Source of the DNA: Occultella glacieicola
Lineage (GTDB): Bacteria > Actinomycetota > Actinomycetes > Actinomycetales > Beutenbergiaceae
NCBI RefSeq assembly: GCF_004353825.1
Contig: NZ_SMNA01000015.1
Coordinates: forward strand, 1 to 64,000
Direction: 5' to 3'
DNA length: 64,000 nt
Shown: piece by piece, positions 10,940 to 26,543 of the stretch
Numbering within the stretch: position 1 is the stretch's first letter
Layout of the letters: the number at the start of each line of letters is the position of its first letter
Position numbers and translations under genes: made by a program
Notes under the pieces: generated by a model
Told to the model about the DNA's origin: nothing
Database searches by the model: none
What the model saw: only the letters and a program-made list of their open reading frames with translations

Positions 10940-11629
10940 TCAGGCGGTCCGACGTGCCCGTAACACCACGTCGTCCACATGGCCGGCGCCGGCCCCGCTC
11001 GTCGGCACCAGGCGGGGGCGGATCTCCAGGGTCTCCACCTGCCAGCCGTCCCCGAGCGTCGCCGCGACCTCCTCCGGGCGGAGGAACTCGCTCGGGTCCG
11101 GTCCGCGCCATCCGGCGGGGAGGTCGCCCTCCGGACCGGCCTCCGGGTGTTGGCGGTGCTGGTGGTCGTGGCCGTGACCCTGGCCGTGGCCCGCGGCCGC
11201 CCGGTCCGCCGGTGCCGTCAGGTCGTGCGCGACCATGAGGAACAACCCACCTGGGGCGACGGCGTCGGTCAAGCCGCGTACCGCCGTCGGGCCCTGGCTG
11301 CGCAGCATCGGGAAGTACATGAGCGAGACCAGGTCGTACCCACCCGGCTCGGGCGGCGCGACGGTCAGGTCGCCGTGGACCCACTCGATCCGGTCGCCGT
11401 GCTCGGTGGTCACCGCAGCAGCGGCACGCTCGAGCGCGACGGGGGAGATGTCCGTCGCCGTCACCCGCCACCCGCGGGCGGCGAGCCAGAGCGCATCGCC
11501 GCCCTCACCCGAGCCCACATCCAGGGCGCGACCCGGCTCGAGGTCGGAGACCTCGATCGCCAGGGCGCCGTTGACCGCGCCGCTCCAGATCCGCTCGGCG
11601 TAGATCCCGTCCCACATCGCCTGGTCCAT
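10940..11629 (-). CDS. SAM-dependent methyltransferase with His-rich insertion
   Basis: A 229-aa class-I methyltransferase. Motif I is ALDVGSGEGGDALWLAARG, an acidic SAM-ribose contact follows in VTATDISPVALERA, and YDLVSLMYFPM is motif-IV-like. Residues ~160-178 form a His-rich loop (GHGQGHGHDHQHRQH) that is unusual for the fold and could bind metal. The start ATG 11629 has AAAGGAG seven bases upstream. The substrate is unknown; the architecture recalls TehB/thiopurine-type methyltransferases. It lies downstream of a metal-uptake operon read in the same direction. Confidence 0.8.
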   Translation of the reverse strand: MDQAMWDGIYAERIWSGAVNGALAIEVSDLEPGRALDVGSGEGGDALWLAARGWRVTATDISPVALERAAAAVTTEHGDRIEWVHGDLTVAPPEPGGYDLVSLMYFPMLRSQGPTAVRGLTDAVAPGGLFLMVAHDLTAPADRAAAGHGQGHGHDHQHRQHPEAGPEGDLPAGWRGPDPSEFLRPEEVAATLGDGWQVETLEIRPRLVPTSGAGAGHVDDVVLRARRTA

Positions 11630-11687
11630 CCGGGCTCCTTTCGTCGTCCCCAGACTGCGCCGGAGCCGACCGATCGACAAACTTTCG

Positions 11688-11737: not shown

Positions 11738-14700
11738 CTATCGGGTCGAGGACCATCGCCTCCGGCCGACCGCCAGCAGCGCCGCACCGGCGAGTGCCAG
11801 CACGAGCGCCACAGTGAGCGCTGCGGCGTGCACCGAGGAGCCGGTCGTTGCGAGTACGGGCGTCCCGTCGTCCGTCCCTGCGTCCCTGTCGCCCGTGTCG
11901 GCGCCGGTGCCACTGTCGGTGTCGTCGCCGGTGCTGCCACCCGTGCCGTCACCACCACCGGTGACGGTCAGTTCAGCCCACCCGATCAACGCGCCGTCGG
12001 ACGTGAACACTGCCAACCGGTGCTCCCCGGCCGTGGCGTCACTCGGGACCTGCACGGTGACGGATCCGGCCGCGGTGGCCCGCAGCCAGTCCCCACCGAG
12101 CAACGTCGGGCCGGAGAACAGCCACGCGGCGACCCACGCCTCGGCGTGTGCGTCGCCAAGACCGAGCCGAAGGAAGTCGCCGGGAGCCACGGAGGTGGCG
12201 TCGAGCGCGATGCCCCCTGCCGGCGTCTCGCCGAGATCGGCGGGGCTCCGGTCGCTCGGTGCCTCGGACGGCTTGCCCGACGGCGGCGGCTCCTCGCCTG
12301 ACTCCTCGACCTGGAGCGTGACGGGCGCCGACGGGCCGTAGGCCGGGGTCCCGTCGGGCTTGACCAGGGCGACGCTGAGCTCGGCGCCACCATGGGCGAG
12401 GGTCGCGGTGAACTCGTACGTCGCCGACGTTGCACCGTTGATCGGCGCAGGCGCCGTCGCTCCCGGCTCCTTCACGAACCACTGGAAGGCGTCGAGCACC
12501 GTGCCGTTCGCGACGGCAGCGGTCAGGCTGACCGCATCCCCCTCTGAGACGGTCGCGCTCCCATCGGCTACCACGTCCCCGGTCACGGTGACCACCTGGA
12601 TCGGCGCCGCACCGTGATCGTCGACCTCGATGGCGACCGGCTCGGCGACGAGCGTCTCAGTGCCACCGCTGAACGTCAGTGTCGCCCGGATCTGCACCCC
12701 GTCGAGCGCCTGTTCGGCCACGAGGACGTGGCTCAGACCTGACGCGTCGGGCAGTGCGCTCCACGCCTGCGAGCCCGGCCACAACCACTCCCAAGCGATG
12801 GTGTCGCCCCGGGCCAGGGCGGGGTCGGCCACCAGGGTCAGGTTGACGTCGCCGCCCTGGTGATAGTGACCGGCGAGACCCTCGAGGTAGAACAGCTGCG
12901 TGTCGGGGTCGATGTCCGAGACCGCCAGCGTCGCGTAGTGCCACCCGACGATCGAGTCGTAGGAGCTGCCGGCAGCAGGGCTGACCTCGAACGCCAACTG
13001 CCACCCGTCGTGGCTCGCCTCCAACGGCAGCTCCACCCTGAGGTTGTCCGGGCCGGGGCCTTCCTTGAGGGTGACACGATCCAGGGTGGAGGTTTCACTG
13101 TTCCACTTGATGAGCTGCCACAGGTAGGACGCACCCTCGAGCGCCGGGTAGACCTCGGCACTCAGGGACATCGTCTGACCGACACGGTAGACCGGCTGGA
13201 ACCCTTGGACGTTGACCTCGCGGGCCAGGATGCTCTTGGTGACGGACTCGCTCTGCGCCACGACGACGCCGTCGCGCAGGGTCTGCACGACCCACGACGG
13301 GCCGTTGAGAGCGTTCGTCGGATGCACGTGGAGCGTGGTCGCGTCGATCTGCGTGCTGATGTCGGCCGCCGAGTTCCAGGGCCCTGTCTCGAAGCGGTAG
13401 GCCAACCGCACCGTCTCGCCGGCAGTCGCTGGGCGATCGAGCGTGAAGGCGATCGGGTCCCCGAGGTAGGAGTCCCCTTCGAGGAACGAGCCACCGATCG
13501 GGTCGTCGTCGGAACCGACGACCAGCGGGACCCAGGCGGACCGGGTCACCACCGCCGAGTTCTCGCGGATCACCACGCTGACTTCGTAGTCGTCGTAGGA
13601 AGCATCGAGCGCAACCCTGAGGCGACCGGCGGCTTCCTGTCCGCCGCCGGTGATGACGTAGGCCGACTCGGCACCGACCGGGCGCCAGTGCCACTGGTAG
13701 ACCTGACCCTCGCCAAGCGTGTGCCCGACCACGCGAGCCTCGAGGTGATCGCCCACCCGGTAGGTCTCCTGGATCCCGGCGATGCCGAACCCGACTCCCG
13801 AGTCGTCCGTGACCGTGACGGTCAAGGGTTGCGACCTCGAGGTCCCGGCGTTGTTCGCGACCGCGGGAACGAAGACGGCGGTCAGGGAATGTCTGCCCAC
13901 CGCCGGCGCGCTCGTCGCGAAGACGGCGGAGCCCTCGACGACACTTTCGTGGCCGAGCACTGTGGTGCCGCTATGGAACTCGACATGGCCTTCGGTGTCA
14001 GCCGGTTCGATGGTGGCCGTGAGGGTCAGCGGGTCGCCGGTGGTGAGGTCGATAGTCGAGGCGGTGAGCGTCGTCGTCGTCGCGACGGCGCGGGGGGCGT
14101 CGCCGACCACGAAGGTGTACGAGGCCGAGGATGACTGTGCGACGCCGTTGATCGAGGCCGTGGCCTCGACCCCGAGCGTGTAGGTGCCGGCCTGCGTGAA
14201 TGCCCAGTTCGCGTGCTTGTGGGTCCAACCGATGTCGAAGCTACGGATCGCTGCGTCCTGGGACGACCACAGTCGCTCGATCGTGCCGATGCCGCCGCCG
14301 GCGAACACCTCCAACTCGCCGGGGCCCTCGATGGAGGTGAGCGTGAAGGTGGTCACGTCCGCATCGATCGTGCCGCGGTCGATCGACTCGGTGTTGAAGC
14401 CCGGCCAGAGCCTGTCGGCGCCCGGGTTGCTCTCCGGAGCCAGCCACACGTCCGTACCCGCGGGCGCGATGAAGCCGTAGTCGCCGGGCAGGACGACCCT
14501 GGCATCGTCCTCGAGGTGGAACCAGACCTCGTCCGGGTCCAGGCGGGTGCCGGTCGCGCCGGGCAGATCAGCCTTGGCCGCCAGGGTGAGCCTGCCCTCG
14601 TCGAGGAACGTGGCGGCGACGTCGGTGTGGACGCCGGAGACGACCTGGTACTCGCTGGGCTCAGGTGCGGGGCCTTCGGCAGCGGCGGCCGACGGCGCCG

Positions 14701-14779
14701 GGAGCAGTAGCGCGCTGAAGCCCACGGCGAGGGTAGTGGCCAGGGCAGCCTCCCGCCGACCCGGTGATCGTGCCGTCAC
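11738..14779 (-). CDS. LAxTG-anchored wall protein A, choice-of-anchor M (anchored-repeat) module plus Ig-like domains
   Basis: A 1013-aa secreted protein. The start GTG 14779 overlaps the upstream GNAT stop by four bases (GTGA), with AAAGGAAG upstream. A signal peptide (~1-33, cut near PSAAAA) is followed by one anchored-repeat module (~38-230) with HKHANWAFT at residues 187-195. Next come an Ig-like Big_3-type domain (~235-330), several further beta-sandwich repeats, and a domain near 850-925 (APGDFLRLGL to GWAELTV) that is also present in wall protein B. An acidic Gly/Asp/Thr linker precedes a sorting signal, LATTG at 976-980, a membrane helix and an Arg-rich tail. LAxTG suggests a class E sortase, which is not in the window. 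Likely role: metal or ligand capture at the wall for the importer encoded on the other strand. Confidence 0.85.
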   Translation of the reverse strand: MTARSPGRREAALATTLAVGFSALLLPAPSAAAAEGPAPEPSEYQVVSGVHTDVAATFLDEGRLTLAAKADLPGATGTRLDPDEVWFHLEDDARVVLPGDYGFIAPAGTDVWLAPESNPGADRLWPGFNTESIDRGTIDADVTTFTLTSIEGPGELEVFAGGGIGTIERLWSSQDAAIRSFDIGWTHKHANWAFTQAGTYTLGVEATASINGVAQSSSASYTFVVGDAPRAVATTTTLTASTIDLTTGDPLTLTATIEPADTEGHVEFHSGTTVLGHESVVEGSAVFATSAPAVGRHSLTAVFVPAVANNAGTSRSQPLTVTVTDDSGVGFGIAGIQETYRVGDHLEARVVGHTLGEGQVYQWHWRPVGAESAYVITGGGQEAAGRLRVALDASYDDYEVSVVIRENSAVVTRSAWVPLVVGSDDDPIGGSFLEGDSYLGDPIAFTLDRPATAGETVRLAYRFETGPWNSAADISTQIDATTLHVHPTNALNGPSWVVQTLRDGVVVAQSESVTKSILAREVNVQGFQPVYRVGQTMSLSAEVYPALEGASYLWQLIKWNSETSTLDRVTLKEGPGPDNLRVELPLEASHDGWQLAFEVSPAAGSSYDSIVGWHYATLAVSDIDPDTQLFYLEGLAGHYHQGGDVNLTLVADPALARGDTIAWEWLWPGSQAWSALPDASGLSHVLVAEQALDGVQIRATLTFSGGTETLVAEPVAIEVDDHGAAPIQVVTVTGDVVADGSATVSEGDAVSLTAAVANGTVLDAFQWFVKEPGATAPAPINGATSATYEFTATLAHGGAELSVALVKPDGTPAYGPSAPVTLQVEESGEEPPPSGKPSEAPSDRSPADLGETPAGGIALDATSVAPGDFLRLGLGDAHAEAWVAAWLFSGPTLLGGDWLRATAAGSVTVQVPSDATAGEHRLAVFTSDGALIGWAELTVTGGGDGTGGSTGDDTDSGTGADTGDRDAGTDDGTPVLATTGSSVHAAALTVALVLALAGAALLAVGRRRWSSTR

Positions 14780-15834
14780 GGTGAGTTCTTCCTTTCGGTC
14801 GTGCTGCGGAGGTTGGTGGGCGCATCGGTGAACAGCGTCAACGCCGGGGCGAAGCCGCGCCGCTGCCAGAACGGCGCCGAGAGTGCGTTGTCGGCCACGT
14901 AGTGGAGCCCGACGGCGTCCGGCGGGTCCGGGAGGTGGCGCGCCCACTCCAGGGCGTGAGCCATCAGCGCCGTTCCGGCGCCGGTCCCGCGGGCGGACGC
15001 GGTCACCGAGGTGAGTCCGAGGTAGGCATACCGGGCCGGGAGTAGGGCGGCGGAGGAGGATCCGGCGGGTGCCGTGAGCACCTGCGCGGTGGTGACGCCG
15101 ACCGGGTGGTCCCATTCGTCGACGGCGACGAACGCGCGCTCACGGTCCTCTCCCGCGCCGTGGTCGAGCCAGTTCCCGGCGATCCGCTCGACCGTGCGCC
15201 GGTCCTGGTCGGGGGCTACCCCGGACCCGGTGTTCGCCGCGTGGAAGGCATGCTCCTCCAGGCACAGCGGGACTACCGCGCCGAGGTCGGACGCCGTCGC
15301 TGCCCGCACGCGCGGGCCGGTGGCAGGTGCGTGGATCGGTGCGTCCAGCGGTCGCAGTGCGAACACGGTGTCCGGGCGGAAACCGAGCGAGCGCCACAGT
15401 CCGGCCGACCACCAGTCGCCGTCCAGGACCTGGATGTTCAGGCGACCGATCGAGGCCGCGTCCAGGTGTTCCCGGGCGGCGGCGAGTAGCGGCGGGAGAG
15501 ACTCGACGGCGGACCTCGGGTCGTGCGCGCACCACGTCGACAGCGGCACGTGTGCGTGCCGTGGCGCCATGTAGGTGTAGGCCTCGTCCCGTGGGGACAG
15601 TCGTGCGATGGCCCCGGCGAGCAGGGCCGTCACGGTCCCGCCGTCGTCGAGCGCGATGTAGGCGAACCGGTCGCCGTCGGTCAGATGAGGATCGAGCGCG
15701 GCGCGAGCGATGCCGGCGGGATCGCGTGGCGGGGAGGAGCCGGGGCCGGCGAGTGAGGCCCGGAGTCTCAGCGCGGTGGCGGCAAGGTCGATGGTGGCCT
15801 CGAGATGGCCGGGGCTCAGCGGAAGGTAACGCAC
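14776..15834 (-). CDS. GNAT-family acetyltransferase (two GNAT-like halves)
   Basis: A 352-aa protein if started at GTG 15834; ATG 15870 is in frame but would place a promoter-like box inside the gene. The C-terminal half has GNAT motif A (ARGTGAGTALM, residues ~281-291) preceded by YLGLTSVTAS, and a final FWQRRGFAPAL strand. The N-terminal half is a degenerate GNAT fold (LNIQVLDGDWWSAGLWRSLGFR), an arrangement like mycothiol synthase and other duplicated GNATs. The substrate is unknown. The gene heads the operon for wall protein A through a 4-base GTGA overlap. A TACGGT hexamer ends six bases before the GTG, so the transcript is probably leaderless and under the adjacent Zur-like box. Confidence 0.78.
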   Translation of the reverse strand: MRYLPLSPGHLEATIDLAATALRLRASLAGPGSSPPRDPAGIARAALDPHLTDGDRFAYIALDDGGTVTALLAGAIARLSPRDEAYTYMAPRHAHVPLSTWCAHDPRSAVESLPPLLAAAREHLDAASIGRLNIQVLDGDWWSAGLWRSLGFRPDTVFALRPLDAPIHAPATGPRVRAATASDLGAVVPLCLEEHAFHAANTGSGVAPDQDRRTVERIAGNWLDHGAGEDRERAFVAVDEWDHPVGVTTAQVLTAPAGSSSAALLPARYAYLGLTSVTASARGTGAGTALMAHALEWARHLPDPPDAVGLHYVADNALSAPFWQRRGFAPALTLFTDAPTNLRSTTERKNSP

Positions 15835-15840
15835 GCGCTC

Positions 15841-15870
15841 ACCGTAATGAGAACCAGTCGCAAATAGCAA
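15841..15870 (-). promoter_or_regulatory. Leftward promoter with Zur-like box 1
   Basis: On the minus strand TTGCTA (15870-15865) and TACGGT (15846-15841) are 18 bases apart and fit -35 and -10 elements. The 15-mer TGAGAACCAGTCGCA at 15848-15862 matches the actinobacterial Zur consensus (TGAAAATGATTTTCA) at nine positions and has symmetric ends TGnGA/TCnCA. Read leftward, it shares TTGCGAnnGnnTCTCATTA with box 2 at 15939-15953. Zur control is inference. Confidence 0.55.
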
Positions 15871-15905
15871 CCAGGAGGGCGCCGCGTTCAGGACCAGGAG
15901 GGCGC
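15870..15905. repeat. 13-bp direct repeat in the divergent regulatory region
   Basis: ACCAGGAGGGCGC occurs at 15870-15882 and at 15893-15905, 23 bases apart, midway between the two divergent promoters. It could be an extra protein-binding element or a small duplication. Confidence 0.6.
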
Positions 15906-15931
15906 TGAACTGCTCTCGCAGCGATCTTCAC

Positions 15932-15960
15932 GTGTTGTTGCGAACGACTCTCATTATAAT
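15932..15960 (+). promoter_or_regulatory. Rightward promoter with Zur-like box 2
   Basis: A perfect TATAAT -10 lies at 15955-15960 with GTGTTG 17 bases upstream at 15932-15937. Between them TGCGAACGACTCTCA (15939-15953) is the reverse-oriented partner of box 1, with the same relation to its -10 element. A repressor bound here would block the -35/-10 spacer. The first gene starts at 16050, leaving a leader of ~83 bases. Confidence 0.6.
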
Positions 15961-16049
15961 GTACGGTCGATCCGTCCCTGACGCCCCTCTCTGCGGGTGT
16001 CTGCCTCGCCGCGCGTCAGCGCCAGATCTGAAACCCAGGTGCACGTCCC

Positions 16050-19000
16050 ATGCCTCCCTCAGCTCCGCGTGTCGGTTCGCGTTCACGCTGCTCGCTCCTC
16101 GCGGTCACCGCGGGGCTCGTCGCGCTCGTCGGCTCAGTACTCGCTCCGCTCGCTCCGAGTGCAGCGTCCGAACGGCCGCTCGTCCTTGACCACGGGCACA
16201 TCGACGCCTTCAACGTGATGCTCGACGACTCCGGTTCGCCGGTACTGACGCTCAAGGAGGACGTCACGGGGTCGCATGTCTCGCATGCTCCCGAGGACGT
16301 ATCGCTGCGGGTGAAGGAAGCGGCGCTGACCTCGCTGCCCGACATCCCGAACGTTCCGGCGCAGGTGCGTGGAACCGACGTCTACTACCTGCCGCTCTCA
16401 CAGGACGCCAACCTCGTCTGGCCGGGCTGGGACAGCCAGAGTCTGGCCGGGACCGGCTATGACCAGGTGGACATCGAGATCCAGGATGTGACCGGTCCGG
16501 GCGAGGTCTATGTGTGGTCCTCGGGCGCGTTCGGTGGTCTGACCTCGCTGCTGACCGACGGCGGCTACGCGCTGCCCAACACCATTCACCAGTCCTACCT
16601 GGCGCACGTGCACGCCAACTGGGCGTTCACACAGGCCGGCGAGTACCACTTCACGGTCCAGGCGTTCGCGATCAACTCGACAACCGGCGAGCGGATACCC
16701 ACGAACACAGGGGAGTACCACTGGATCGTCGGCGACGTGCCCGAACCGGCGCCAACCATGCTGACTATCGAAGGCCTGGCGAACCCGTACGAGCCAGGAG
16801 CCGCGGTGAGCCTGCGGGCCGTCCCGGACGTCGAGGCAGAGGGTGCCGCCCACGGCTGGGAAACGCTGGGCGCTGACGGGACCTGGCTGCAGATCGAAGG
16901 TCAGGACACCGCGACCCTCGCGGGCATCGCAGCATCCGACGGCCAGCAGGTGCGTGCGTGGCTTCGCCTGGGTGAGGCCACGTTGACCTCTGAGCCTGTC
17001 ACCATCGAGGTCAACGCCGCGCCGCAACTTCCGCGGGCCTTGATCATCGACGGGCTCGAAGCATCCTACGTGCAGGGTGCCGACGTCCGGCTCGAGGCCA
17101 AGCCAGACATCCTGGTCGAGGGCGCCACGTATCGCTGGGAGACCTCGGTAGACGGCGAGACATGGACGACCAGCCCTGCGACCACGGGCTCGGTCCACAC
17201 CGGGATCGCGCAGTCCGACGGGCAGCGTCTGCGCGTGACGATCATCATCGGCGGCGCCGATGTCGTGACGTCGGCACCGGTGGTCCTGGTCGTCGAAGCG
17301 GCCGCGCCCGTCCTGCCTACGAGCGTCTCCCTCGAAGGGCTGGCGAACCCGTACGCACCGGGTACCTCGGTCACCCTCACCGCCGTCCCCGATATTCCCG
17401 CCGACGGTCTCGTGCACCAATGGTCGACATCGGCCGACGGCGTGACCTGGCACACCATCGAGGCGGACGCGGGGCCTGTGCTGACGATTCCCGCCAGCGA
17501 CGGCCAGTGGGTCAGGGTGGCCATCCGCTTCGCGGGTGACGAGCTCGCCGTCGCCACGCCGGTCACGGTCCGCACCCTCGAGGAACCGATCACCGCGCCG
17601 ACACGCTTGACGATCGGCGGTCTGGCGGACTCCTACGTCGCAGGGGCTGCCGTCGCGCTCACGGCGGAGCCGGATGTCGTGGTGCCCGGGGCGTCCTACC
17701 GGTGGGAGTCCTCGCTCGACGGGACCGCGTGGCGAGCCGTCACGGGCCAGACCACGAACTCCTACTCGTCCACCGCCGAGGCCGACGGTGAGCGGATCCG
17801 GGCGGTCCTGGTGCTGGACGGTGCTGACGTCGTGACGTCCCAGCCCGTCACGATCGTGCTCCGTTCCGACTCGCCCGGCCTCTGCTGGGCGCTCGACCTC
17901 GATCACGGCCACGTGGACGCCTTCAACGTCGCACTCATCGGTGGCGACCCGGTGTTGACGCTCAAGGAGGACGTCACCGGTTCGCACGTCCAGCACGCCC
18001 CCGAAGAGGTGAACCTCGTAGTCAAGGCAGCAGCGCTGGAGACCCTCCCCGATGTGGCGTCGGTCCCGGAGGGCCTACGTGGCGTCCCGGCGTACTACCT
18101 TCCACTGAACCAGGATCCGAACCTGCTCTGGCCGGGCTGGGACAGCCAGGGCCTCGCCGGCAGCGGTTTCGACCAGGTCGACATCAGGATCCTCGAGGTC
18201 CACGGACCCGGCGAGGTGTACCTGTGGAGCACCGGCTCCTTCGGAGAACTCGACTCGCTGTTGGTAGGGGACGGCTACACGTTGCCGGGCACCATCCATC
18301 AGTCCTACCTCGCGCACGTTCACGCCAACTGGGCGTTCACGCAACCTGGTACCTACCACGTCACGGTGGAGGCGACCGCGATCAACTCCACCACCGGGGC
18401 TCGCGTCACGACGAACACGGGCGACTACCTGTTCTCGGTTGGCGACTTCGTGGCCGCCCCCGGCGATCATGCCTGCCCCTCCGACGGGCCGGCGGTTCCG
18501 ACTCTGGCGCCGGCGGCACCGGCCGAGGACGAGCTGACCGACGCCACGCGCGGGGGTGTCACGGTCAGCCCGGCTGAGGTCGACGCAGGTGAGCAGGTCA
18601 CGGTGGAGGTCGGAGATGCCGTGGCCGGGGACTTTGCGGCCGCGTTCATCTTCTCGGAGCCTCACCTGCTGAATCCCACCGTCGACGGCGGCTGGAACCG
18701 GACCAATGCAACGGGGGCTTTCCAGGTGAGTATCCCCCGGGATACCGCGCCGGGTGATCACCGGGTCGCGGTCGTCGATCGCGACAGCGAACTTGTCGGC
18801 TGGGCGGATGTGCTGGTCACCGAGGCCGCGGACCCTGACCCGACGCCGCCCCCGGGTACGACGCCACCCCGGGGCGTGACGCCGCCGGGCGGATCCGCTC
18901 CGGGGGGCACGAATCCCGGCGGAACCCCGCAGTTGTGCCGGCCGGTAGCCGCCTCGGCGACACCCACGTCAGGAACTGGTGCGAACCCTTCCGTCAACGG

Positions 19001-19793
19001 TGCCGCGGCGACGCCCACCGGCGAGGTGGTGGTCGGCGCCGAGGGACACTTCGACTTCGGCCCCGCGATCCTCGACGGATGGTTCACCGTCCTGGTGAAA
19101 GATGACCGCACCGCGCCGCCGGTGTGGCGCGATCCGGCGACCGTCGTCTTCGACCTCGGCGACGCCGCGCTCCGTTCGGCCGAGGAGATCCCGGACGAGT
19201 TGTCCTTCATCGCCCCGGCCGGCCAGGACGTCTACATGATCCAGCAGATCCAGGAGTCCGGGGTGCCGTGGCTGGGCTGGAACACCCAGCACGAAACCGT
19301 AGTGAACGGCCCCGGCGCGCGTGGCGTGGAGATGACGCTCGACGATGTGGAGGGCCCCGGTGAACTGGCCGTCTTCCTGAACGGCAACTTCGGCCAATTG
19401 GTCGGCCACCGGGTCGTGGACACCGTCGGTGGTCCGACGAGCTACACGATTCCTGGCAATACCCACCAGCACGGCAATTGGGTGTTCACCGAGGCCGGAG
19501 TGTATGCGGTCACGATCACGATCAGTGCCGACGGCGAGAGTGCCACCTCGACCCTGCAGTTCTCCGTGGGGCAGAGCGACCCAGCGGCGGCAGCGACCGG
19601 AACCACTTCGGCCACGACCGGCACCCAGGCCACGGCAGGCTCCGGAGTCACCGCGGACGGCGAGCCGTGCGTCCTTGCCTCCACCGGAGCGGACACCGAG
19701 ATGGGGCTTCTGGCGCTGGCCGGTGCACTCGTGATGCTGGCGGGTGGAGTCCTCGTGCGGGCCTCGCGGCGCAGGTCCTATGTCGGACGCTGA
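16050..19793 (+). CDS. LAxTG-anchored wall protein B with three anchored-repeat modules and four Ig-like repeats
   Basis: A 1247-aa secreted protein starting at ATG 16050. After a signal peptide (~1-40) come: module 1 (~43-232, HVHANWAFT at 186-194); four ~90-residue Ig-like repeats (~235-605) that each begin like LTIEGLANPYEPGAAVSL; module 2 (~612-805, HVHANWAFT at 756-764), very close to module 1; a domain shared with wall protein A (~830-925); a Pro/Gly/Thr linker; and module 3 (~970-1160, HQHGNWVFT at 1139-1147). The sorting signal LASTG is at 1209-1213, followed by a membrane helix and an RASRRR tail. Each module also has a GHxD motif near its start. This matches the wall component (TIGR03773-type) of anchored repeat-type ABC transporters. 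The 3' end overlaps the next gene by 14 bases. Metal capture is the inferred role. Confidence 0.87.
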   Translation: MPPSAPRVGSRSRCSLLAVTAGLVALVGSVLAPLAPSAASERPLVLDHGHIDAFNVMLDDSGSPVLTLKEDVTGSHVSHAPEDVSLRVKEAALTSLPDIPNVPAQVRGTDVYYLPLSQDANLVWPGWDSQSLAGTGYDQVDIEIQDVTGPGEVYVWSSGAFGGLTSLLTDGGYALPNTIHQSYLAHVHANWAFTQAGEYHFTVQAFAINSTTGERIPTNTGEYHWIVGDVPEPAPTMLTIEGLANPYEPGAAVSLRAVPDVEAEGAAHGWETLGADGTWLQIEGQDTATLAGIAASDGQQVRAWLRLGEATLTSEPVTIEVNAAPQLPRALIIDGLEASYVQGADVRLEAKPDILVEGATYRWETSVDGETWTTSPATTGSVHTGIAQSDGQRLRVTIIIGGADVVTSAPVVLVVEAAAPVLPTSVSLEGLANPYAPGTSVTLTAVPDIPADGLVHQWSTSADGVTWHTIEADAGPVLTIPASDGQWVRVAIRFAGDELAVATPVTVRTLEEPITAPTRLTIGGLADSYVAGAAVALTAEPDVVVPGASYRWESSLDGTAWRAVTGQTTNSYSSTAEADGERIRAVLVLDGADVVTSQPVTIVLRSDSPGLCWALDLDHGHVDAFNVALIGGDPVLTLKEDVTGSHVQHAPEEVNLVVKAAALETLPDVASVPEGLRGVPAYYLPLNQDPNLLWPGWDSQGLAGSGFDQVDIRILEVHGPGEVYLWSTGSFGELDSLLVGDGYTLPGTIHQSYLAHVHANWAFTQPGTYHVTVEATAINSTTGARVTTNTGDYLFSVGDFVAAPGDHACPSDGPAVPTLAPAAPAEDELTDATRGGVTVSPAEVDAGEQVTVEVGDAVAGDFAAAFIFSEPHLLNPTVDGGWNRTNATGAFQVSIPRDTAPGDHRVAVVDRDSELVGWADVLVTEAADPDPTPPPGTTPPRGVTPPGGSAPGGTNPGGTPQLCRPVAASATPTSGTGANPSVNGAAATPTGEVVVGAEGHFDFGPAILDGWFTVLVKDDRTAPPVWRDPATVVFDLGDAALRSAEEIPDELSFIAPAGQDVYMIQQIQESGVPWLGWNTQHETVVNGPGARGVEMTLDDVEGPGELAVFLNGNFGQLVGHRVVDTVGGPTSYTIPGNTHQHGNWVFTEAGVYAVTITISADGESATSTLQFSVGQSDPAAAATGTTSATTGTQATAGSGVTADGEPCVLASTGADTEMGLLALAGALVMLAGGVLVRASRRRSYVGR

Positions 19794-21369
19794 CCATCGA
19801 ACGGCGGGGCCATGCCGGCCCCGCCGTGTCGCCGGCGTCGGCACCGTCGCGGCGGTCGCAATGCTGGTGGCTGGCTGCTCGCTCGTACGGGACAGCGCGG
19901 CGGAAGCGGACCGTCCGTCGATCGTGACGACGACGGGCATCATTGCGGATCTCGCCCGCAATGTGGTCGGGGACCGCATGGATGTGCACTCGCTGGTCCC
20001 GGAGGGTGGGGACCCGCACTCCTACGAGCCGTCGTTGCGGGACGTGCGAGCCGTCGCGTATGCGGATGCGGCGTTCTCCAACTACGTGCTGCTCGAGGCG
20101 CACTCCATCATCCGCACGCTCGACGCCAACCTCGCCGAGGGTGTTCCCAATGTGGCGCTCGCGGAGGCAGGCGTCCGGTACGCCGCCGAGATCATCCCGC
20201 TGGTCGAGAACATCTCGCTCGACACGGTCTGGCTCGGCATGCGGGTACGCGGCACCGGTGCGCACAACGGCGCTGACCGTGCGTCATCGGTGGAGCTGAC
20301 GGCCACCGAAGTGCGTGGTCCCGGTGAGATGTTCGCCTACCTGACCGAGACGTTCGGGGACCCGGACTTCTCGGTGAACTCCAGCGACGGCCTCAGCGAT
20401 GCCGACGTGACCGTCCTGCCACCGGACGCGCACACCCATATGAGCTGGGCGTTCACAGAGGTTGGCGTGTATGAGGTGACCTTCGCCGCGCACCTGGACG
20501 TCACCGAGGACGAGCGGGTCGAACTCGGCGCTCCGACGACGGTGACCTTCGCCGTCGGGGTCGATCCCCACTCGGTGCCCGGGATGGAGGGCGCGACGGT
20601 GCTCGACTCCGGCCACGCGGACGTCACGGTCGACCTGGATGCACCCGGTGGCGACATCTACCTGTACGTGGACCCGCATGGGGGTGGCGACCAGACGCAG
20701 GAGGTCCATTCGGCGCGGGAGGTTGTGGTGTCGGTGCCGACCCGGGCACTCCACGAGATTCCGGGGGACCCGCGGTTCCGCTTCCTCGGCCGGGCCGGCG
20801 AGCTGGTCTACCAACTGCCGCAGGCGGTCCTCGGCGCCCACGTGCACGGGGAGATCGACCCGCACCTGTGGCAGAACGTGCGCAACGCGCAGGCTTACGT
20901 GGAGATCATCCGGGACACCGTCATCGAGGTGGATCCGGCCGGTGCCGCGCAGTACCGGGCGAACACGGCCGCGTACCTTCGTGAACTCGAAGTGCTGGAC
21001 ACCTATGTCGAGCAGACGATCGAATCGATTCCCCTCTCTCGCCGGCACCTGGTCACGACCCACGACGCGTTCGGCTACCTCGGCGCGGCCTACGGCGTCG
21101 ACATCGCCGGCTTCGTGACGCCGAACCCGGCGACCGAGCCGAGCATCGCCGAACGCAGGCGACTCGTCGAGACCATTCGAAACCTGAGGGTGCCAGCGGT
21201 GTTCCTGGAACCGAACCTGATCTCGCGTTCGAGCACGTTGCGGGAGGTTGCCCGGGAACTCGACATCGAGGTCTGCCGGATCTACGGCGACGCCTTCGAC
21301 ACCGACGTGACCACCTACATCGAGATGATGCGCTTCAACGCTGACTCTCTCCGCGACTGCCTGACCTGA
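19780..21369 (+). CDS. ZnuA-type metal-binding lipoprotein with inserted anchored-repeat module
   Basis: A 529-aa ABC substrate-binding protein. A signal peptide with lipobox LVAGC puts the lipidated Cys at 33. The cluster A-I (zinc/manganese) fold is clear: GGDPHSYEPSLRDV (His80), GEIDPHLWQNV (His362), TTHDAFGYLG (His428) and CRIYGDAFDT (Asp504) are the expected metal ligands. Between the first two, where family members have ~80 residues, there are ~280. The ~200-residue insertion (~140-345) is an anchored-repeat module with HTHMSWAFT at 218-226 and a second SGHAD segment. This is the architecture of TIGR03772-type proteins. It starts at ATG 19780 inside the end of the preceding gene. It should deliver zinc or manganese to the downstream permease. 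Confidence 0.9.
   Translation: MSDADHRTAGPCRPRRVAGVGTVAAVAMLVAGCSLVRDSAAEADRPSIVTTTGIIADLARNVVGDRMDVHSLVPEGGDPHSYEPSLRDVRAVAYADAAFSNYVLLEAHSIIRTLDANLAEGVPNVALAEAGVRYAAEIIPLVENISLDTVWLGMRVRGTGAHNGADRASSVELTATEVRGPGEMFAYLTETFGDPDFSVNSSDGLSDADVTVLPPDAHTHMSWAFTEVGVYEVTFAAHLDVTEDERVELGAPTTVTFAVGVDPHSVPGMEGATVLDSGHADVTVDLDAPGGDIYLYVDPHGGGDQTQEVHSAREVVVSVPTRALHEIPGDPRFRFLGRAGELVYQLPQAVLGAHVHGEIDPHLWQNVRNAQAYVEIIRDTVIEVDPAGAAQYRANTAAYLRELEVLDTYVEQTIESIPLSRRHLVTTHDAFGYLGAAYGVDIAGFVTPNPATEPSIAERRRLVETIRNLRVPAVFLEPNLISRSSTLREVARELDIEVCRIYGDAFDTDVTTYIEMMRFNADSLRDCLT
19801..19827 (+). promoter_or_regulatory. Perfect 11-bp hairpin at the wall-protein/substrate-binding gene junction
   Basis: ACGGCGGGGCC and GGCCCCGCCGT are perfect inverted arms around a 5-base loop. 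They lie eight bases after the stop of wall protein B and within codons 8-16 of the next gene. There is no T-tract, so it is not a classic terminator. It could cause attenuation, stabilise the upstream mRNA or slow translation, setting different amounts of the two proteins. Confidence 0.6.
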
Positions 21370-21377
21370 GGAGTTCC

Positions 21378-22358
21378 GTGATTCCCCCGAACGTCCGCCG
21401 CAGGCGGCTTGCCCTTGCCCTGACCGCCGTGGCACTGATAGGAACCACCGCCGTTCCCAGCGCGGTGGCCGACACCGCGGATGACCTCGACCAGACCGTG
21501 GATCCCGATGAAGCTCTCGGACAGGGGCAGGTCGTGGTCGATTCCGGCCATCTCGACATCGGGCCACGGCTGCCGGGCGGCACATGGCAGCTGCAGATCC
21601 GCGACGACTCCCAGGCACCCCCGGTGTGGCGGTATCCACAGGACGTGGTGTTCCACCTGCTCGACGACTCGATCCTGCCGGCTCCCGCGGAGGAGGAGTT
21701 CGACTTCATCGACGCGGAGCCGGGGTCCGAGGTCTACGTCATCCCACAGACCCAACTGACCGAGGTCGTGTGGGTCGGCTGGAACAGCCAGGACCCCGAG
21801 GTGGTCTCACAACTGGCCGGTGGGATGACCCTGCGGTTCCACGGCGCGCAGGGACCGGGCCAGTTCACGCTGTTCCTGCAGAGCGGGAACTTCGACCCCC
21901 CTCAGCTGCTGTGGACGTCCGACGATCCGGAACCCCAGGACATCTGGGCCGACGCCAACACCCACGTGCACGGCAACTGGGTCTTCACCGAGCCCGGCGC
22001 CTATCTCATGGACGTCGAGGTGCTCGCGGAACTGACCGACGGCACCTCGGTCAGTGACCGTAGCCTGCTCCGATTCGCCGTCGGTACCGCCGCTGATCCC
22101 GAGGCACTCTTCGGATCGGAGTGGGACGCGGCGGGAGCCGTGGCCGACCCCGACGGTTCGGTGGGCCTCGACAGTTCGGATGACTCGGACCCGAGCGACT
22201 CTGGATCTTCAGGCACGAATGCCGCCGGCGACACGGGCGGACCACCGATCGCCGTCGTTGCCGGGGGCGGGGCACTGATGGTCGTGGCCGCCGCAGCCAT
22301 CGTCGGGGGACTGCGCTCGCGGCGAGCGCGGCGCCAGGCCGAGTCGGAGTCGGAGTGA
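21378..22358 (+). CDS. Membrane-anchored anchored-repeat module protein
   Basis: A 326-aa protein starting at GTG 21378 with TGAGGAG upstream. The signal peptide (~1-31) is followed by a single module (~50-235) with VDSGHLDIG near its start, VVWVGWNSQDPE in the middle and HVHGNWVFT at 196-204. A Ser/Asp/Gly-rich stalk leads to one membrane helix (~288-310) and a short RRARRQ cytoplasmic end. Unlike the two wall proteins it has no LAxTG motif, so it stays in the membrane. It overlaps the ATPase gene by four bases (GTGA). It may be the membrane-level relay or a subunit of the transporter. Confidence 0.82.
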   Translation: MIPPNVRRRRLALALTAVALIGTTAVPSAVADTADDLDQTVDPDEALGQGQVVVDSGHLDIGPRLPGGTWQLQIRDDSQAPPVWRYPQDVVFHLLDDSILPAPAEEEFDFIDAEPGSEVYVIPQTQLTEVVWVGWNSQDPEVVSQLAGGMTLRFHGAQGPGQFTLFLQSGNFDPPQLLWTSDDPEPQDIWADANTHVHGNWVFTEPGAYLMDVEVLAELTDGTSVSDRSLLRFAVGTAADPEALFGSEWDAAGAVADPDGSVGLDSSDDSDPSDSGSSGTNAAGDTGGPPIAVVAGGGALMVVAAAAIVGGLRSRRARRQAESESE

Positions 22359-23125
22359 GCACGCGGCCCAGGCCCGGCGCGACGCCCGCACTGCGGGTGC
22401 AGGACCTGGCGGTGGATCTTGGCGGCCGACCGGTCCTGCACAACGTCAGCCTCGACGTGGACGCCGGCGAGCTCGTCGGGCTGGTCGGTCCGAACGGGGC
22501 GGGCAAGACCACGCTGCTGCGCGCCGTGCTGGCGCTCGTGCGCACCCGAGCCGGCGCCGTTCGCATCGACGGCGACACCTCCCGCCGTGCACGGACCCAG
22601 GTCGGCTACGTGCCACAGCGGCACGAGTTCTCCTGGGACTTCCCGATCAGCGTCGAGGGTGTGGTGCTGACCGGACGAGTCGGCTCGATCGGGTGGCTGC
22701 GTCGGCCTGGCGTGGATGACTATCGGGCCGTGCGCGAAGCACTCGACAAGGTGCGGATGACCGACCTTCGTCATCGGACCGTCGGGGAACTGTCCGGTGG
22801 GCAGCGCCAGCGGGTGCTCGTGGCCAGGGCGCTGGCGCTGCGCCCGAGGCTGTTGTTGCTCGACGAGCCCTTCACCGGCCTGGACATTCCGACGCAGGAA
22901 CTCCTGACCGATCTGTTCCTCGATCTCAGTTCCGAGGGCCGGGCCCTGCTGATGACCACCCATGACCTCACCGGGGCCCGGCACGCGTGCTCGCGGCTGT
23001 GCCTGATCAACCGAACCGTGATCGCGGACGGCCCACCACAGGAGTTGACCGACCCCGACGTATGGATCCGTACCTTCGGCTTCCGTACGGGATCGCCCCT
23101 GCTGACCCAGCTGGGGGTGTCGTGA
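22355..23125 (+). CDS. Anchored repeat-type ABC transporter ATPase
   Basis: A 256-aa ABC ATPase of the metal-uptake (ZnuC/MntB) group. It has Walker A GPNGAGKTT, signature LSGGQRQRV, Walker B LLLLDEP followed by FTGLD, and the switch His in MTTHDL. The GTG start at 22355 overlaps the preceding stop as GTGA, and its own stop overlaps the permease start. It energises import by the adjacent permease. Confidence 0.95.
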   Translation: MSTRPRPGATPALRVQDLAVDLGGRPVLHNVSLDVDAGELVGLVGPNGAGKTTLLRAVLALVRTRAGAVRIDGDTSRRARTQVGYVPQRHEFSWDFPISVEGVVLTGRVGSIGWLRRPGVDDYRAVREALDKVRMTDLRHRTVGELSGGQRQRVLVARALALRPRLLLLDEPFTGLDIPTQELLTDLFLDLSSEGRALLMTTHDLTGARHACSRLCLINRTVIADGPPQELTDPDVWIRTFGFRTGSPLLTQLGVS

Positions 23126-24027
23126 TGTTGTCCTTCACCGAGTTCCTCGCGGACCTGTCCAACCCGCTGCTGACGTTCCTGCCCAAGGCGCTCTTGATCG
23201 CCGTCATGTCCTCTGTGGTCTGCGGGGTCATCGGGTGCTACGTGGTGTTGCGGGGCATGGCGTTCATCGGCGACGCCGTTGCCCACGCCGTGTTTCCGGG
23301 CCTGGCCGTCGCGTTCGTGCTGCAGGGGTCCCTGGTGCTCGGGGGGATGGTCGCGGGTGTGCTGACCGCCGTGCTGGTGGCCGTGTTCTCACAGAACCGT
23401 CGGCTCAAGGAGGACAGTGTCATCGGCATCTTCTTTGCCGCCGCGTTCGCCTTGGGCATCGTGATCATCTCCCGGTCGCCGGGATACGCGGGATCGCTGC
23501 AGAGCTTCCTGTTCGGGTCGATCACGGGCATCCCCGACGAGGACGTCTACACGGTCGCGGGCGCCGGTGCGGTCCTGCTTCTGGCCGCGCTCGCGATCCA
23601 CAAGGAGATCGTGGCGGCGAGTCTTGATCGTGAGATGGCCCGGTCGATGGGCCTACCCGTGTTCGCGATCGACCTGACGTTGTACGTCATGGTGACCATC
23701 GCCGTCGTCGTCTCCGTGCAGACCATCGGGAACATCCTCGTGCTCGCGCTGCTCATCACACCGGCGGCTACGGCCCGGCTGCTGACCGATCGCCTCGGCC
23801 TCATGATGGTGCTTGCCCCGGTCCTCGGGGCTGCGGCCGCGCTCATCGGCGTCTACCTGTCCTGGTCACTCGACCTGCCGACCGGAGGCACGATCGTGCT
23901 GACCTCGACCGTGTTGTTCCTGATCACCTGGGCGATCGCCCCCAAGCACGGGATGCTCGGCAGGATCCTCCCAGCGCACGTCCACCACGCCCGCGCGGAC
24001 GTTCGTGATCTCGATCCGGTCGGATGA
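23125..24027 (+). CDS. Anchored repeat-type ABC transporter permease (ABC-3 family)
   Basis: A 300-aa ZnuB-like permease with ~8-9 helices. Typical features are GCYVVLRGMAFIGDAVAHAVFPGLA, which includes the ABC-3 conserved His-Ala segment, and TIGNILVLALLITPAATARLL. It ends with the usual PTGGTIVL and APKHGM region. The start is ATG 23125 (TGATG overlap with the ATPase stop); GTG 23122 is an alternative. The last 162 bases overlap the 3' end of the convergent rhamnosidase gene. Confidence 0.93.
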   Translation: MLSFTEFLADLSNPLLTFLPKALLIAVMSSVVCGVIGCYVVLRGMAFIGDAVAHAVFPGLAVAFVLQGSLVLGGMVAGVLTAVLVAVFSQNRRLKEDSVIGIFFAAAFALGIVIISRSPGYAGSLQSFLFGSITGIPDEDVYTVAGAGAVLLLAALAIHKEIVAASLDREMARSMGLPVFAIDLTLYVMVTIAVVVSVQTIGNILVLALLITPAATARLLTDRLGLMMVLAPVLGAAAALIGVYLSWSLDLPTGGTIVLTSTVLFLITWAIAPKHGMLGRILPAHVHHARADVRDLDPVG

Positions 24028-26532
24028 CCGGGTGATCATGGACTCCGCCGGTGCCTCGACGGTGATCGGCTCGGCCGGGACGAGGTCGCCGCGGTGGAGG
24101 ATGACGCGGGCGGTCGTGTTCGGCGGCGTGGTGACGCGAAGGTGGCCACGGCTGCGGTCGTAGTCGACCGTGACCGGGCCCCGGATGGTCGGGACCGTCC
24201 CGGACATGCGGCCGAGAGGACCGGGACGCGGTTCGATCACGAGGCGTGCAGCCCCGGGCGCCTCCGGACGCACCCCGAGGATCCATCGAGCGATCACGTT
24301 GACCGGAGCGGACCCCCAGGCGTGGGAGTAGGTCATGTTGGGCTTCAAGGACGGATCCCAGGCCTCGGGGACGATCGTGGCCGCGAGGTCGTCGATCAGG
24401 TGCAGCCAACTGTTCGGCCCGGACGCGGACATGAGCGCGAGTGCCTGGTCGCTCCGGCTCGCCCGGCAGAGGGCTTCCAGGAGGAACTGGGCACCGTAGA
24501 CGCTCATCCTCATGCCGCCGCGGCAGAGCAAGTCACCGAGCCCCGCGAGCCGGTCGGCAGGAGCGAGGCCGAGAGCGACCGGGAACGCCGTGGCATGTTG
24601 GCTGTGATGGGTCGAACCCAGCCCGTCACGGTAGGCGGACGCGTCGAGCAGCAGCGAGTTGACGGCGGTGGCCATCCGGTCGGCCAGGGCACTGTAGTGG
24701 GCGGCCTCGTCCGCACGGTCGATGACCTCGGCGATCCGGGCGAGGGCAGCGTAGGCGGCGGCCTGGAAGGCGTTCAGGACCGTGTTCACCTCGGTGAACT
24801 CGTACCCGTCCCGGTAGGTGGCCGGCCAGTCGACGAGGTCGGAGTCCCATCCGCTGGTCGGTCCCGGTTCCTTGCGCAGCAGGCCGTTCCCACCGAGGTG
24901 GTCGTCGTAGTTGAGTCCTTGCCAGAGGTCGAAGTCGGTGCGCAGCTGCCGGTCGTCCCCGGTGGCGACGTAGTCCTCCCAGGCCATCAGGACCGGCATC
25001 AGGTGGTACTCGGACGGCCAGGTGGAGCGCCGGGTGAGGTATTCGCCGGAGTAGCGTGCCAGCGCGTAGCTGCGCTCGACCGCGTACTGGGAGAGCTGGT
25101 TCACGTACGCGTCTCCCTCGTACGGGCCGCGCTCTCGGGCCGGGGTGTCGAGGTACACGTCGAGCGAGGTGGCCTCGATCGAGTACCGGCAGAGCTCCCA
25201 CACGCGGTCCAGATCCGGGTCGGAGGAGGAGAACGCAGCACCGCCCACATAGGGGGAGTGGAGCACGACGGGCCTGACCGCGTGGGTCAGGTCGAGCGCC
25301 GGGTCCGCGGCGAGCTCGACGTAGCGGAACGCCCGGTACCCCCAGTGCTCCACCGACTGCGGACCCTCACGCAACGTCCAGACGTCCTCGTAGACGTTGC
25401 CCGTCCGCATCCGGAACCGGACGCGTCCGTCCTCCTGCTCCTCGCCGAGGCGCACCTGCACGCGCACCCCCGCAGTGCCGGCGGTGCCGTCGATGTCGAG
25501 GCGGATCCCGCCGACGATCTCGCGGCCGAGGTCGACGAACCAGCGGCCGTCCGGCCGGCGGGCCGCCTCGGCGACCTCGCCGACGCTCTGCTCGATGCTC
25601 ACGATCGCCGGGGCCGGACCGGGCGGCGCCCCGCGCGCGAGGGCCGGTGCCCAGTCGCCGTCGTCGAACCCGGGCTCGGTCCAACCCACGGGTTCGTGCC
25701 TGAGGTCCCAGTCCTCGCGGGGGGCGCGGTACCACCCGCCGCCGACGTCCGTCGTCCCGGGGAGCATCGTCGCCCCGCTCGCGGCCCGCCACCGGGTGGA
25801 GGTGGGTACTTCGATGCGGCGACCGTCGGCGAGCACCACGACAAGTCGTGCGACGAACTGCCGACCGTGCTCGGCCCAGCACAACGCCGCCAGCGCGTTC
25901 CCGCCCGGCCGCAGGACCCTCGAGAGATCGTGGGTGTGATACCTGGCGCGCGCGTCCGAGGCGCGCACGCTGCCACGCCCGGCGACGTGCCCGTTGGCCC
26001 ACAACTTGTAGACGTACTGCCGCCCACCCCGCGGCCCGGCCCCCGCCGTCGGCCCACCCTCGGGCGAGCACCCCGCGGCCTCGACGAACGCCGCCAGCAC
26101 CGGCACCTCCGGAAGGTCGAACTCGGTGCGTAGGAGCACCCAGGAGTTCTCGACGCCGGAGTCCTCGACGACGACGGGCCCCCAGATCGGCGTGCCACCC
26201 CAGGTCCCGGCCGCGGTGACGAACCGGGACGGCGCCGCCCAGTCCCCGGCCACCGACGTGTCGACACGCACCCGCCACCAGTACGGCCTCGAGGGCTCCA
26301 GCCGCGGGCCCGCGTACGGGACGGCGGTCGACGACCTCGACTCGACCGTCCCGCTGTCCCAGACCGGCGCTCCGAACGACGTCGGCGCCGCGGCGACCTG
26401 GACCCGGAACCGCACCTGCATGCCGTCGCCGAGCGGCGGGACCAGCCAGGAGAACCGGGCCCCGGCCACGTCCACACCGACCGGTTCGGACTGCAGGTCG
26501 ACCATCAGGCCGGACGGTCGGACGTCCGGCAC
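23866..26532 (-). CDS. Alpha-L-rhamnosidase (GH78-like)
   Basis: About 888 aa, cytoplasmic (no signal peptide). The start is uncertain: GTG 26532 is used here, and TTG 26547 would give a TTGA overlap with the upstream gene. An N-terminal Ig-like region (DVRPSGLMVDLQSEPVGVD, FSWLVPP) is followed by a lectin-like domain with YHTHDLSRVLRPGGNALAAL. The (alpha/alpha)6 catalytic part has YLDTPARERGPYEGDAYVNQLSQYA, whose Arg/Glu/Asp residues match the GH78 catalytic segment, and EAWDPSLKPNMTYSHAWGSAPV. It should remove terminal alpha-L-rhamnose from imported oligosaccharides. The C-terminus runs ~54 codons into the antisense of the convergent permease gene, beyond the expected domain end. Confidence 0.87.
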   Translation of the reverse strand: MPDVRPSGLMVDLQSEPVGVDVAGARFSWLVPPLGDGMQVRFRVQVAAAPTSFGAPVWDSGTVESRSSTAVPYAGPRLEPSRPYWWRVRVDTSVAGDWAAPSRFVTAAGTWGGTPIWGPVVVEDSGVENSWVLLRTEFDLPEVPVLAAFVEAAGCSPEGGPTAGAGPRGGRQYVYKLWANGHVAGRGSVRASDARARYHTHDLSRVLRPGGNALAALCWAEHGRQFVARLVVVLADGRRIEVPTSTRWRAASGATMLPGTTDVGGGWYRAPREDWDLRHEPVGWTEPGFDDGDWAPALARGAPPGPAPAIVSIEQSVGEVAEAARRPDGRWFVDLGREIVGGIRLDIDGTAGTAGVRVQVRLGEEQEDGRVRFRMRTGNVYEDVWTLREGPQSVEHWGYRAFRYVELAADPALDLTHAVRPVVLHSPYVGGAAFSSSDPDLDRVWELCRYSIEATSLDVYLDTPARERGPYEGDAYVNQLSQYAVERSYALARYSGEYLTRRSTWPSEYHLMPVLMAWEDYVATGDDRQLRTDFDLWQGLNYDDHLGGNGLLRKEPGPTSGWDSDLVDWPATYRDGYEFTEVNTVLNAFQAAAYAALARIAEVIDRADEAAHYSALADRMATAVNSLLLDASAYRDGLGSTHHSQHATAFPVALGLAPADRLAGLGDLLCRGGMRMSVYGAQFLLEALCRASRSDQALALMSASGPNSWLHLIDDLAATIVPEAWDPSLKPNMTYSHAWGSAPVNVIARWILGVRPEAPGAARLVIEPRPGPLGRMSGTVPTIRGPVTVDYDRSRGHLRVTTPPNTTARVILHRGDLVPAEPITVEAPAESMITRSSDRIEITNVRAGVVDVRWEDPAEHPVLGGDRPGDQEQHGRGQHDRASGRQVE

Positions 26533-26543
26533 CCGCGGACGGG

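What the first reader, a model, noticed from the sequence alone, without database searches (positions are those of the whole stretch)
11738..24027. Divergent, probably zinc-controlled wall-to-membrane metal uptake locus
One divergent regulatory region drives a leftward GNAT/wall-protein operon and a rightward operon of a wall protein, a ZnuA-type lipoprotein, a membrane-anchored module protein, an ATPase and an ABC-3 permease. The families of the rightward operon match the named but functionally undescribed 'anchored repeat-type ABC transporter' set. The His/His/His/Asp ligands of the binding protein say zinc or manganese. Two LAxTG proteins, a membrane module and a module inside the binding protein suggest a physical relay through the thick wall, comparable in idea to heme relays. 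The added GNAT gene and the second wall protein are not part of the usual set as I know it.
Basis: partly seen in the sequence, partly recalled or inferred. Interest (0 to 1): 0.85.

Follow-up and report, generated by a model that had tools for sequence, protein, structure and literature searches.

The report
Zinc-uptake operon with wall-anchored zinc modules
This actinobacterium carries a zinc-scavenging system in which copies of one probable zinc-binding module sit on the cell wall, on the membrane and inside the transporter's own capture protein; the system is already known from another bacterium, but the rearranged copy inside the capture protein and an added enzyme gene look like new details.

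Summary
The genes are there as described. Wall protein, binding protein, ATPase and permease exceed curated NCBIfam cut-offs. The system is not undescribed: it corresponds to the Zur-repressed ZnuAECB/ZnuFG zinc system of Corynebacterium diphtheriae (PMC6711530, PMC12445094). Zinc control is supported here: the only two window matches of score 16 or more to the published actinobacterial Zur consensus lie in the divergent region, and 26 of 40 related loci have a match of 18 or more at the operon start against about 0.8 expected. Two details look new. (1) The binding protein holds a circularly permuted copy of the module: 41 of 41 proteins show the reversed order and keep HxH and HxD, at the place of the His-rich loop of the genome's ordinary ZnuA. 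(2) The GNAT gene is rare (3 of 297 genomes of the order); those three genomes carry the system, and each copy has a Zur-like box at its start, one of them unlinked. Best reading: a Zur-repressed zinc uptake system with surface capture. Module-to-module hand-over is inferred; published genetics fit surface sequestration as well.

The parts
11738..14779 (-). Second wall protein (WALL2, 1013 aa) with one module, an Ig-like domain and an LATTG sorting tail
   Evidence: NF038134 133 bits, PF16640; GTG start overlaps the GNAT stop
14105..14644 (-). Module of the second wall protein
   Evidence: NF038134
14776..15834 (-). GNAT-family acetyltransferase gene, GTG start
   Evidence: PF00583 39.2 bits, cut-off 20.7; no NCBIfam match at 0.001
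15845..15865 (.). Zur-like box, 11 bases upstream of the GNAT start
   Evidence: score 18 of 23
15936..15956 (.). Zur-like box before the rightward operon, touching a TATAAT at 15955-15960
   Evidence: score 19 of 23; TATAAT read; no paired sigma-70 promoter found
16050..19793 (+). First wall protein (WALL1, 1247 aa), three modules, LASTG sorting tail
   Evidence: TIGR03773 475 bits, cut-off 190
16182..16730 (+). WALL1 module 1
   Evidence: NF038134
17898..18440 (+). WALL1 module 2
   Evidence: NF038134
19041..19568 (+). WALL1 module 3
   Evidence: NF038134
19780..21369 (+). ZnuA/TroA-type substrate-binding lipoprotein (SBP) with an inserted permuted module
   Evidence: TIGR03772 734 bits, cut-off 350; PF01297; start
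20221..20556 (+). C-terminal part of the module (profile 77-184, holds HxH), placed first in the SBP
   Evidence: 60.7 bits
20599..20826 (+). N-terminal part of the module (profile 1-73, holds GHxD), placed second in the SBP
   Evidence: 26.2 bits, E 2.0e-5
21378..22358 (+). ZnuE-like single-module protein with a C-terminal membrane stretch
   Evidence: NF038134 181 bits, cut-off 55; TIGR03773 172 bits, below its cut-off of 190
21534..22082 (+). Module of the ZnuE-like protein
   Evidence: NF038134; model with mean pLDDT 90.3
22355..23125 (+). ABC ATPase
   Evidence: TIGR03771 360 bits, cut-off 269
23125..24027 (+). ABC-3 permease
   Evidence: TIGR03770 453 bits, cut-off 297; start

Best explanation
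A Zur-repressed high-affinity zinc uptake system with surface capture. When zinc is short, Zur leaves the two boxes and both divergent units are expressed. Wall proteins (four modules in all) and a membrane-anchored single-module protein bind zinc at His-x-Asp/His-x-His sites. The lipoprotein, which carries a circularly permuted copy of the same module next to its metal cleft, feeds the ABC-3 permease and ATPase. I think it most likely that the permuted copy is the docking and acceptor domain for zinc from the surface modules, in place of the flexible His-rich loop of ordinary ZnuA; that hand-over step alone I put at about 0.35. The GNAT enzyme is a further member of the Zur regulon with unknown substrate. 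Shown here: gene content, module homology, permuted order, ligand conservation, Zur-like boxes. Shown by others in C. diphtheriae: Zur repression, thermal shifts with zinc, need for ZnuE in low zinc. Inferred: zinc as the metal in this organism, hand-over, the GNAT's role.
For: Four families over curated cut-offs. Every module match found in the 5.34-Mb genome (E 0.001) lies in this locus. Published Zur consensus: two window hits of 16 or more, both in the divergent region; shuffles of the 360-bp region reach one hit of 18 in 1 of 2000 and two in 0 of 2000, 20 window shuffles gave none. 26 of 40 other loci have a hit of 18 or more at the operon start, about 0.8 expected. The score also flags the genome's ordinary znuA (19, 0 of 1000 shuffles) and cysteine-free L33 (17, 5 of 1000) but not the cysteine-bearing L33 (13, 510 of 1000). 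A Fur-family gene lies beside the ordinary znu genes. SBP, membrane module protein, ATPase and permease in 40 of 40 loci, a co-oriented wall-like frame upstream in 31 of 40. Reversed module order in 41 of 41 SBPs, HxHxxW before GHxD in 41 of 41, four ligands invariant in 9 of 9 aligned modules. His-rich stretch at the insertion point in the ordinary ZnuA. C. diphtheriae. Acceptor-loop precedent AztD to AztC.
Against: 14 of 40 loci have no hit of 18 or more near the assumed operon start. The window boxes are imperfect palindromes; the stricter Streptomyces 15-mer with up to 3 mismatches does not match; no paired sigma-70 promoter was found. C. glutamicum Zur bound DNA with zinc or manganese in vitro. 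In C. diphtheriae the znuA mutant has a weak phenotype, znuF and znuG mutants grow normally, deleting znuF/znuG rescues the transporter mutant, and His-to-Ala ZnuE still shifted with zinc. The N-terminal piece of the SBP module scores weakly in some proteins (per-stretch E up to about 0.05, 0.16 for a fragment in L064). The SBP model was unusable (mean pLDDT 35.6), so the two pieces were not seen to form one domain.
Confidence: 0.72

Rival explanations
1. The wall proteins are a zinc store or sponge on the surface and do not hand zinc to the transporter; only the membrane module protein and the ABC components carry out uptake.
For: In C. diphtheriae deletion of znuF and znuG restores growth of the transporter mutant, and cloned znuF or znuG reduces growth, for znuG through its His residues.
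Against: A wall-like frame leads the transporter operon here and in 31 of 40 loci; the SBP keeps its own ligand-bearing copy of the module in 41 of 41.
Confidence: 0.3
2. The system takes up manganese, or both metals, under a manganese regulator rather than Zur.
For: The ATPase and SBP also match manganese transporter models, below their cut-offs; the best PDB sequence match of the SBP is a manganese-binding MntA.
Against: Zur-like boxes; the third cleft ligand is His where MntA has Glu (alignment); C. diphtheriae orthologues are zinc- and Zur-repressed.
Confidence: 0.08
3. The SBP insert is not one permuted domain but two half-modules that fold apart.
For: No usable structure model; weak scores of the N-terminal piece in some proteins.
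Against: The pieces are nearly complementary, the C-terminal one starting at profile position 51-82 in 37 of 41 and the N-terminal one ending at 77-78 in most, and both ligand pairs are kept in 41 of 41.
Confidence: 0.1

Closest known systems
ZnuAECB-ZnuF-ZnuG zinc system of Corynebacterium diphtheriae (dip0438-dip0443; CmrA, CmrA2)
   Same: Same transporter families, membrane module protein, wall module proteins, HxD/HxH sites, reversed motif order in ZnuA, Zur control
   Different: There the wall genes form a second downstream operon; here a wall gene leads the transporter operon and a second one lies divergent behind a GNAT gene. The paper reports the reversed order but its text holds neither 'circular' nor 'permut'
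Anchored repeat-type ABC transporter set (NCBIfam TIGR03769 to TIGR03773, NF038134)
   Same: Wall protein, SBP, ATPase and permease exceed the cut-offs
   Different: GNAT gene is not part of the set; the membrane module protein is below the TIGR03773 cut-off
AztD/AztC of Paracoccus denitrificans
   Same: Works like: an extra zinc protein outside the membrane gives zinc to a cluster A-I SBP through a flexible loop (PMC6689063, passages)
   Different: No homology of AztD to the module appeared in any search here; the loop is a folded module in this SBP
AdcA with fused ZinT domain, and Pht proteins of streptococci
   Same: Works like: fused or surface zinc proteins that feed a ZnuA-type SBP (as described in passages)
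   Different: Different domains; relation not tested here

Membership tests
Anchored repeat-type ABC transporter (TIGR03770/71/72/73) | Permease, ATPase, SBP and wall protein above curated cut-offs | tested here: met
   452.8, 360.4, 733.8, 475.3 bits against 296.8, 268.8, 350.45, 190.3
Anchored repeat-type ABC transporter (TIGR03770/71/72/73) | Module (NF038134) in surface proteins of the same locus | tested here: met
   Five full modules and one in two pieces
C. diphtheriae type Znu zinc system | HxD/HxH in all modules, reversed in the SBP | tested here: met
   9 of 9; 41 of 41
C. diphtheriae type Znu zinc system | Zinc binding and need in zinc-poor growth | not testable with these tools
   Reported for C. 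diphtheriae only
Zur regulon | Zur box at the promoter | tested here: met
   consensus from PMC5472717 and PMC2823685; the stricter 15-mer was not met
Zur regulon | Zinc- and Zur-dependent repression | not testable with these tools
   Shown for C. diphtheriae orthologues only
GNAT superfamily | Acetyltransf_1 above gathering score, acetyl-CoA loop | tested here: met
   39.2 bits against 20.7; RGTGAG (that this is the acetyl-CoA loop is recalled)
Sortase-anchored wall proteins | Sorting signal and a sortase in the genome | tested here: met
   LASTG and LATTG tails; three sortase genes; which sortase acts was not tested

The most novel reading that the evidence does not exclude
The capture lipoprotein has replaced the His-rich acceptor loop of ZnuA by a circularly permuted copy of the very module used by the wall proteins, so that donor and acceptor are the same fold and zinc passes from module to module across the wall into the transporter; in Occultella a Zur-controlled acetyltransferase is an added part.
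Probability: 0.35. Interest if true: 0.72.

Novelty: new variant of a known kind. Interest (0 to 1): 0.48.

Why it matters
How Gram-positive bacteria move zinc across a thick wall is open. A permuted copy of the wall module inside the binding protein gives a concrete donor-acceptor interface to test, offers an explanation for the reversed motif order that the C. diphtheriae authors reported, and holds in the 41 binding proteins examined. The GNAT gene is a candidate new member of the zinc-starvation response.

Tried and rejected
Heme: no heme-binding protein family appeared for the SBP or wall proteins in Pfam or NCBIfam (the ATPase has a weak general match to a heme ABC ATPase, below its cut-off), so the heme comparison is an analogy only. 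A 16-bp palindrome in the own genome was uninformative: 8 places, against 4 for the reversed control. The pattern was built from the two sites themselves and is not used as evidence. The Streptomyces 15-mer with up to 3 mismatches found nothing in the window. Solved structures: no sequence relative of the membrane module protein at E 1, nothing at E 0.001 or better for the module model by Foldseek, best E 0.064 for the GNAT, so neither fold nor substrate could be named from them. The SBP structure job with two sequences gave an unusable model. No model coordinates were found in the Python box, so ligand distances were not measured. The genome-contig scan for the GNAT gave one close locus, O. 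gossypii, and three short weak matches; it used two short peptide patterns, so absence there is weak evidence. Class-level search: own genome and four partial distant matches in 394 genomes. A literature search for a GNAT in Zur regulons listed nothing on point (listing only).
Full report
Observation. The leftward unit is GNAT 14776-15834 followed by a wall protein 11738-14779 whose GTG start overlaps the GNAT stop. The rightward unit is wall protein, lipoprotein, membrane module protein, ATPase and permease, with overlapping or nearly touching genes. Wall protein, SBP, ATPase and permease exceed their NCBIfam cut-offs; the membrane protein and the second wall protein exceed the cut-off of the module (NF038134) but not that of TIGR03773. 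In the genome (search at E 0.001) the module was found only in this locus: five full copies and one in two pieces. Three sortase genes are present elsewhere.

Organism. The closest named relative is Occultella gossypii (Micrococcales, Ruaniaceae). Its contig has the same length, 234944, as contig 1 of genome G002, which genome search places in the window's genus, so I take the two to be the same genome and the window to be an Occultella.

Prior art. The system is described in Corynebacterium diphtheriae. PMC6711530 (passages) shows zinc and Zur repression of dip0438-dip0444, which include the annotated anchored-repeat SBP, ATPase and permease. PMC12445094 (abstract, introduction, three results sections, discussion and passages) names it ZnuAECB with ZnuF and ZnuG, reports thermal shifts with zinc for ZnuE, ZnuF and ZnuG, the HxD/HxH motif, and the reversed order of the motif in ZnuA. 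In Gardnerella vaginalis anchored-repeat transporter and choice-of-anchor M genes are among the ten most induced in a medium simulating genital secretions (PMC11979175, passages). So 'functionally undescribed' is out of date.

Zinc control. I used the 21-bp actinobacterial Zur consensus as quoted in PMC5472717 (passages), which traces to comparative work like that in PMC2823685 (passages); weights 2 for capitals and 1 for small letters were mine, maximum 23. The window has two hits of 16 or more: 19 at 15936-15956 and 18 at 15845-15865. Shuffling the 360-bp region gave at least one hit of 18 in 1 of 2000 and two in 0 of 2000; 20 shuffles of the window gave none. Against this, the Streptomyces 15-mer with up to three mismatches does not match, and no paired sigma-70 promoter was found, although a TATAAT lies at 15955-15960. 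In 40 loci of other genomes, 26 have a hit of 18 or more between 350 bases before and 250 after the assumed operon start, where about 0.8 would be expected from the density elsewhere in the same loci. 14 do not; in L054, L076 and L077 a hit lies 461 to 720 bases away, and the operon start was placed by open frame only. Several of the 40 are close relatives of each other, so they are not independent. The score also picks out the genome's ordinary znuA (19, 0 of 1000 shuffles as good) and cysteine-free L33 (17, 5 of 1000) but not the cysteine-bearing L33 (13, 510 of 1000). One of three Fur-family genes follows the ordinary znu genes; I take it for zur by position.

Neighbourhoods. In 40 of 40 loci SBP, membrane module protein, ATPase and permease occur together, in that order in 39 (in L075 the membrane module protein precedes the SBP); 31 of 40 have a co-oriented wall-like frame upstream (BLAST E 1e-5 to window proteins). 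Full-length modules per locus range from 1 to 6.

Permuted module. NF038134 matches the SBP twice, first with positions 77-184 and then with 1-73. A profile of the five full window modules gives the same order in 41 of 41 SBPs (window plus 40 loci): the first piece starts at profile position 51-82 in 37 of 41 (99-146 in L064, L074, L075 and L077), the second ends at 77-78 in 40 of 41 (58 in L074). The second piece is weak in some proteins, with per-stretch E-values up to about 0.05. HxHxxW precedes GHxD in 41 of 41 (for L071 only the longer piece of a split gene was used). This is the pattern of a circular permutation cut near position 78. The insert ends just before the second cleft ligand (DPH). 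In the genome's ordinary ZnuA the same place holds a His- and Glu-rich stretch before DPHFWLDP. A further HxHG precedes that ligand in 39 of 41 printed rows; L076 deviates and the printed slice of L074 does not reach it. The module itself models well as a beta-rich domain (nine sequences, mean pLDDT 90.3) and found no solved relative at E 0.001 or better. The SBP model was unusable (35.6). I found no paper that calls this a permutation: PMC12445094 holds neither 'circular' nor 'permut', and searches listed none on point; most subscription papers are not in the library.

GNAT. It matches Pfam Acetyltransf_1 and no NCBIfam model at 0.001. At E 1e-10 homologues occur in 3 of 297 genomes of the order: own, O. 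gossypii (73% identical) and G121 (43%); a weak match, E 4.8e-5, is in G065. The three are among the 47 of 297 genomes over the TIGR03772 cut-off. By hand arithmetic three random genomes would all fall there with a chance near 0.004, but two are of one genus. Two of the five family members with the system (G016, G201) lack the gene. The box lies 11 bases before the GNAT start in both Occultella copies (window 15845 and 15834; L086 1497-1517 and 1528). In G121 the gene is about 61 kb from the operon, and a Zur-like box overlaps its presumed start (score 17, 0 of 1000 shuffles). In five more distant GNAT loci the best score anywhere was 13-15 (L088, L103-L106). In O. gossypii a COG0523-type GTPase with its own Zur-like box (score 18, 4 of 1000 shuffles) faces the GNAT gene; its best NCBIfam match is NF047431, 108 bits, well below the cut-off of 375. 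In G016 a CobW-family match lies on the opposite strand just beyond the start of the wall gene, with a Zur-like box near it. So the divergent slot seems to hold different zinc-starvation genes in different relatives; that is an inference from few cases. The GNAT substrate is unknown.

Mechanism. Best supported: zinc scavenging under Zur control with capture on surface modules. Most likely next step, inferred: the SBP's permuted module is the acceptor in place of the His-rich loop. The loop of AztC is needed to take zinc from AztD (PMC6689063, passages). In C. diphtheriae the wall proteins behave like a sponge when the transporter is missing, and the His-to-Ala forms did not settle the binding site.

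Verdict. Real and largely known; a new variant in gene layout and, in my reading, a clearer account of the binding protein's architecture.

Noticed in passing
L045 (O. gossypii), oriented about 4160-5300: COG0523-type GTPase gene with its own Zur-like box facing the GNAT gene; the own genome shows only a weak CobW-family match (30.8 bits inside a 1217-residue frame).
   Followed up: partly
L047/L117 (G016): A CobW-family match sits opposite the wall gene of the zinc operon, where Occultella has the GNAT gene.
   Followed up: partly
L071 (G121): The TIGR03772 binding protein is split over two reading frames in this genome, by mutation or sequencing error; described only.
   Followed up: no
window 20800-20870 and the same place in related binding proteins: A conserved HxHG directly before the second cleft ligand in 39 of 41 printed rows, a possible extra metal site where module and cleft meet.
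   Followed up: partly
window 10940-11680: Methyltransferase gene with weak TehB similarity just left of the locus; a homologue is also near the O. gossypii locus.
   Followed up: no
window 23866-26781: Alpha-L-rhamnosidase gene converging on the permease gene; the open frame overlaps the permease end.
   Followed up: no
own genome, contig C1 near 69-72 kb (L002, L107): A second, ordinary znuA with His-rich loop and Zur-like box, beside an ABC permease, an ATPase and a Fur-family gene, so this genome has two zinc importers.
   Followed up: partly
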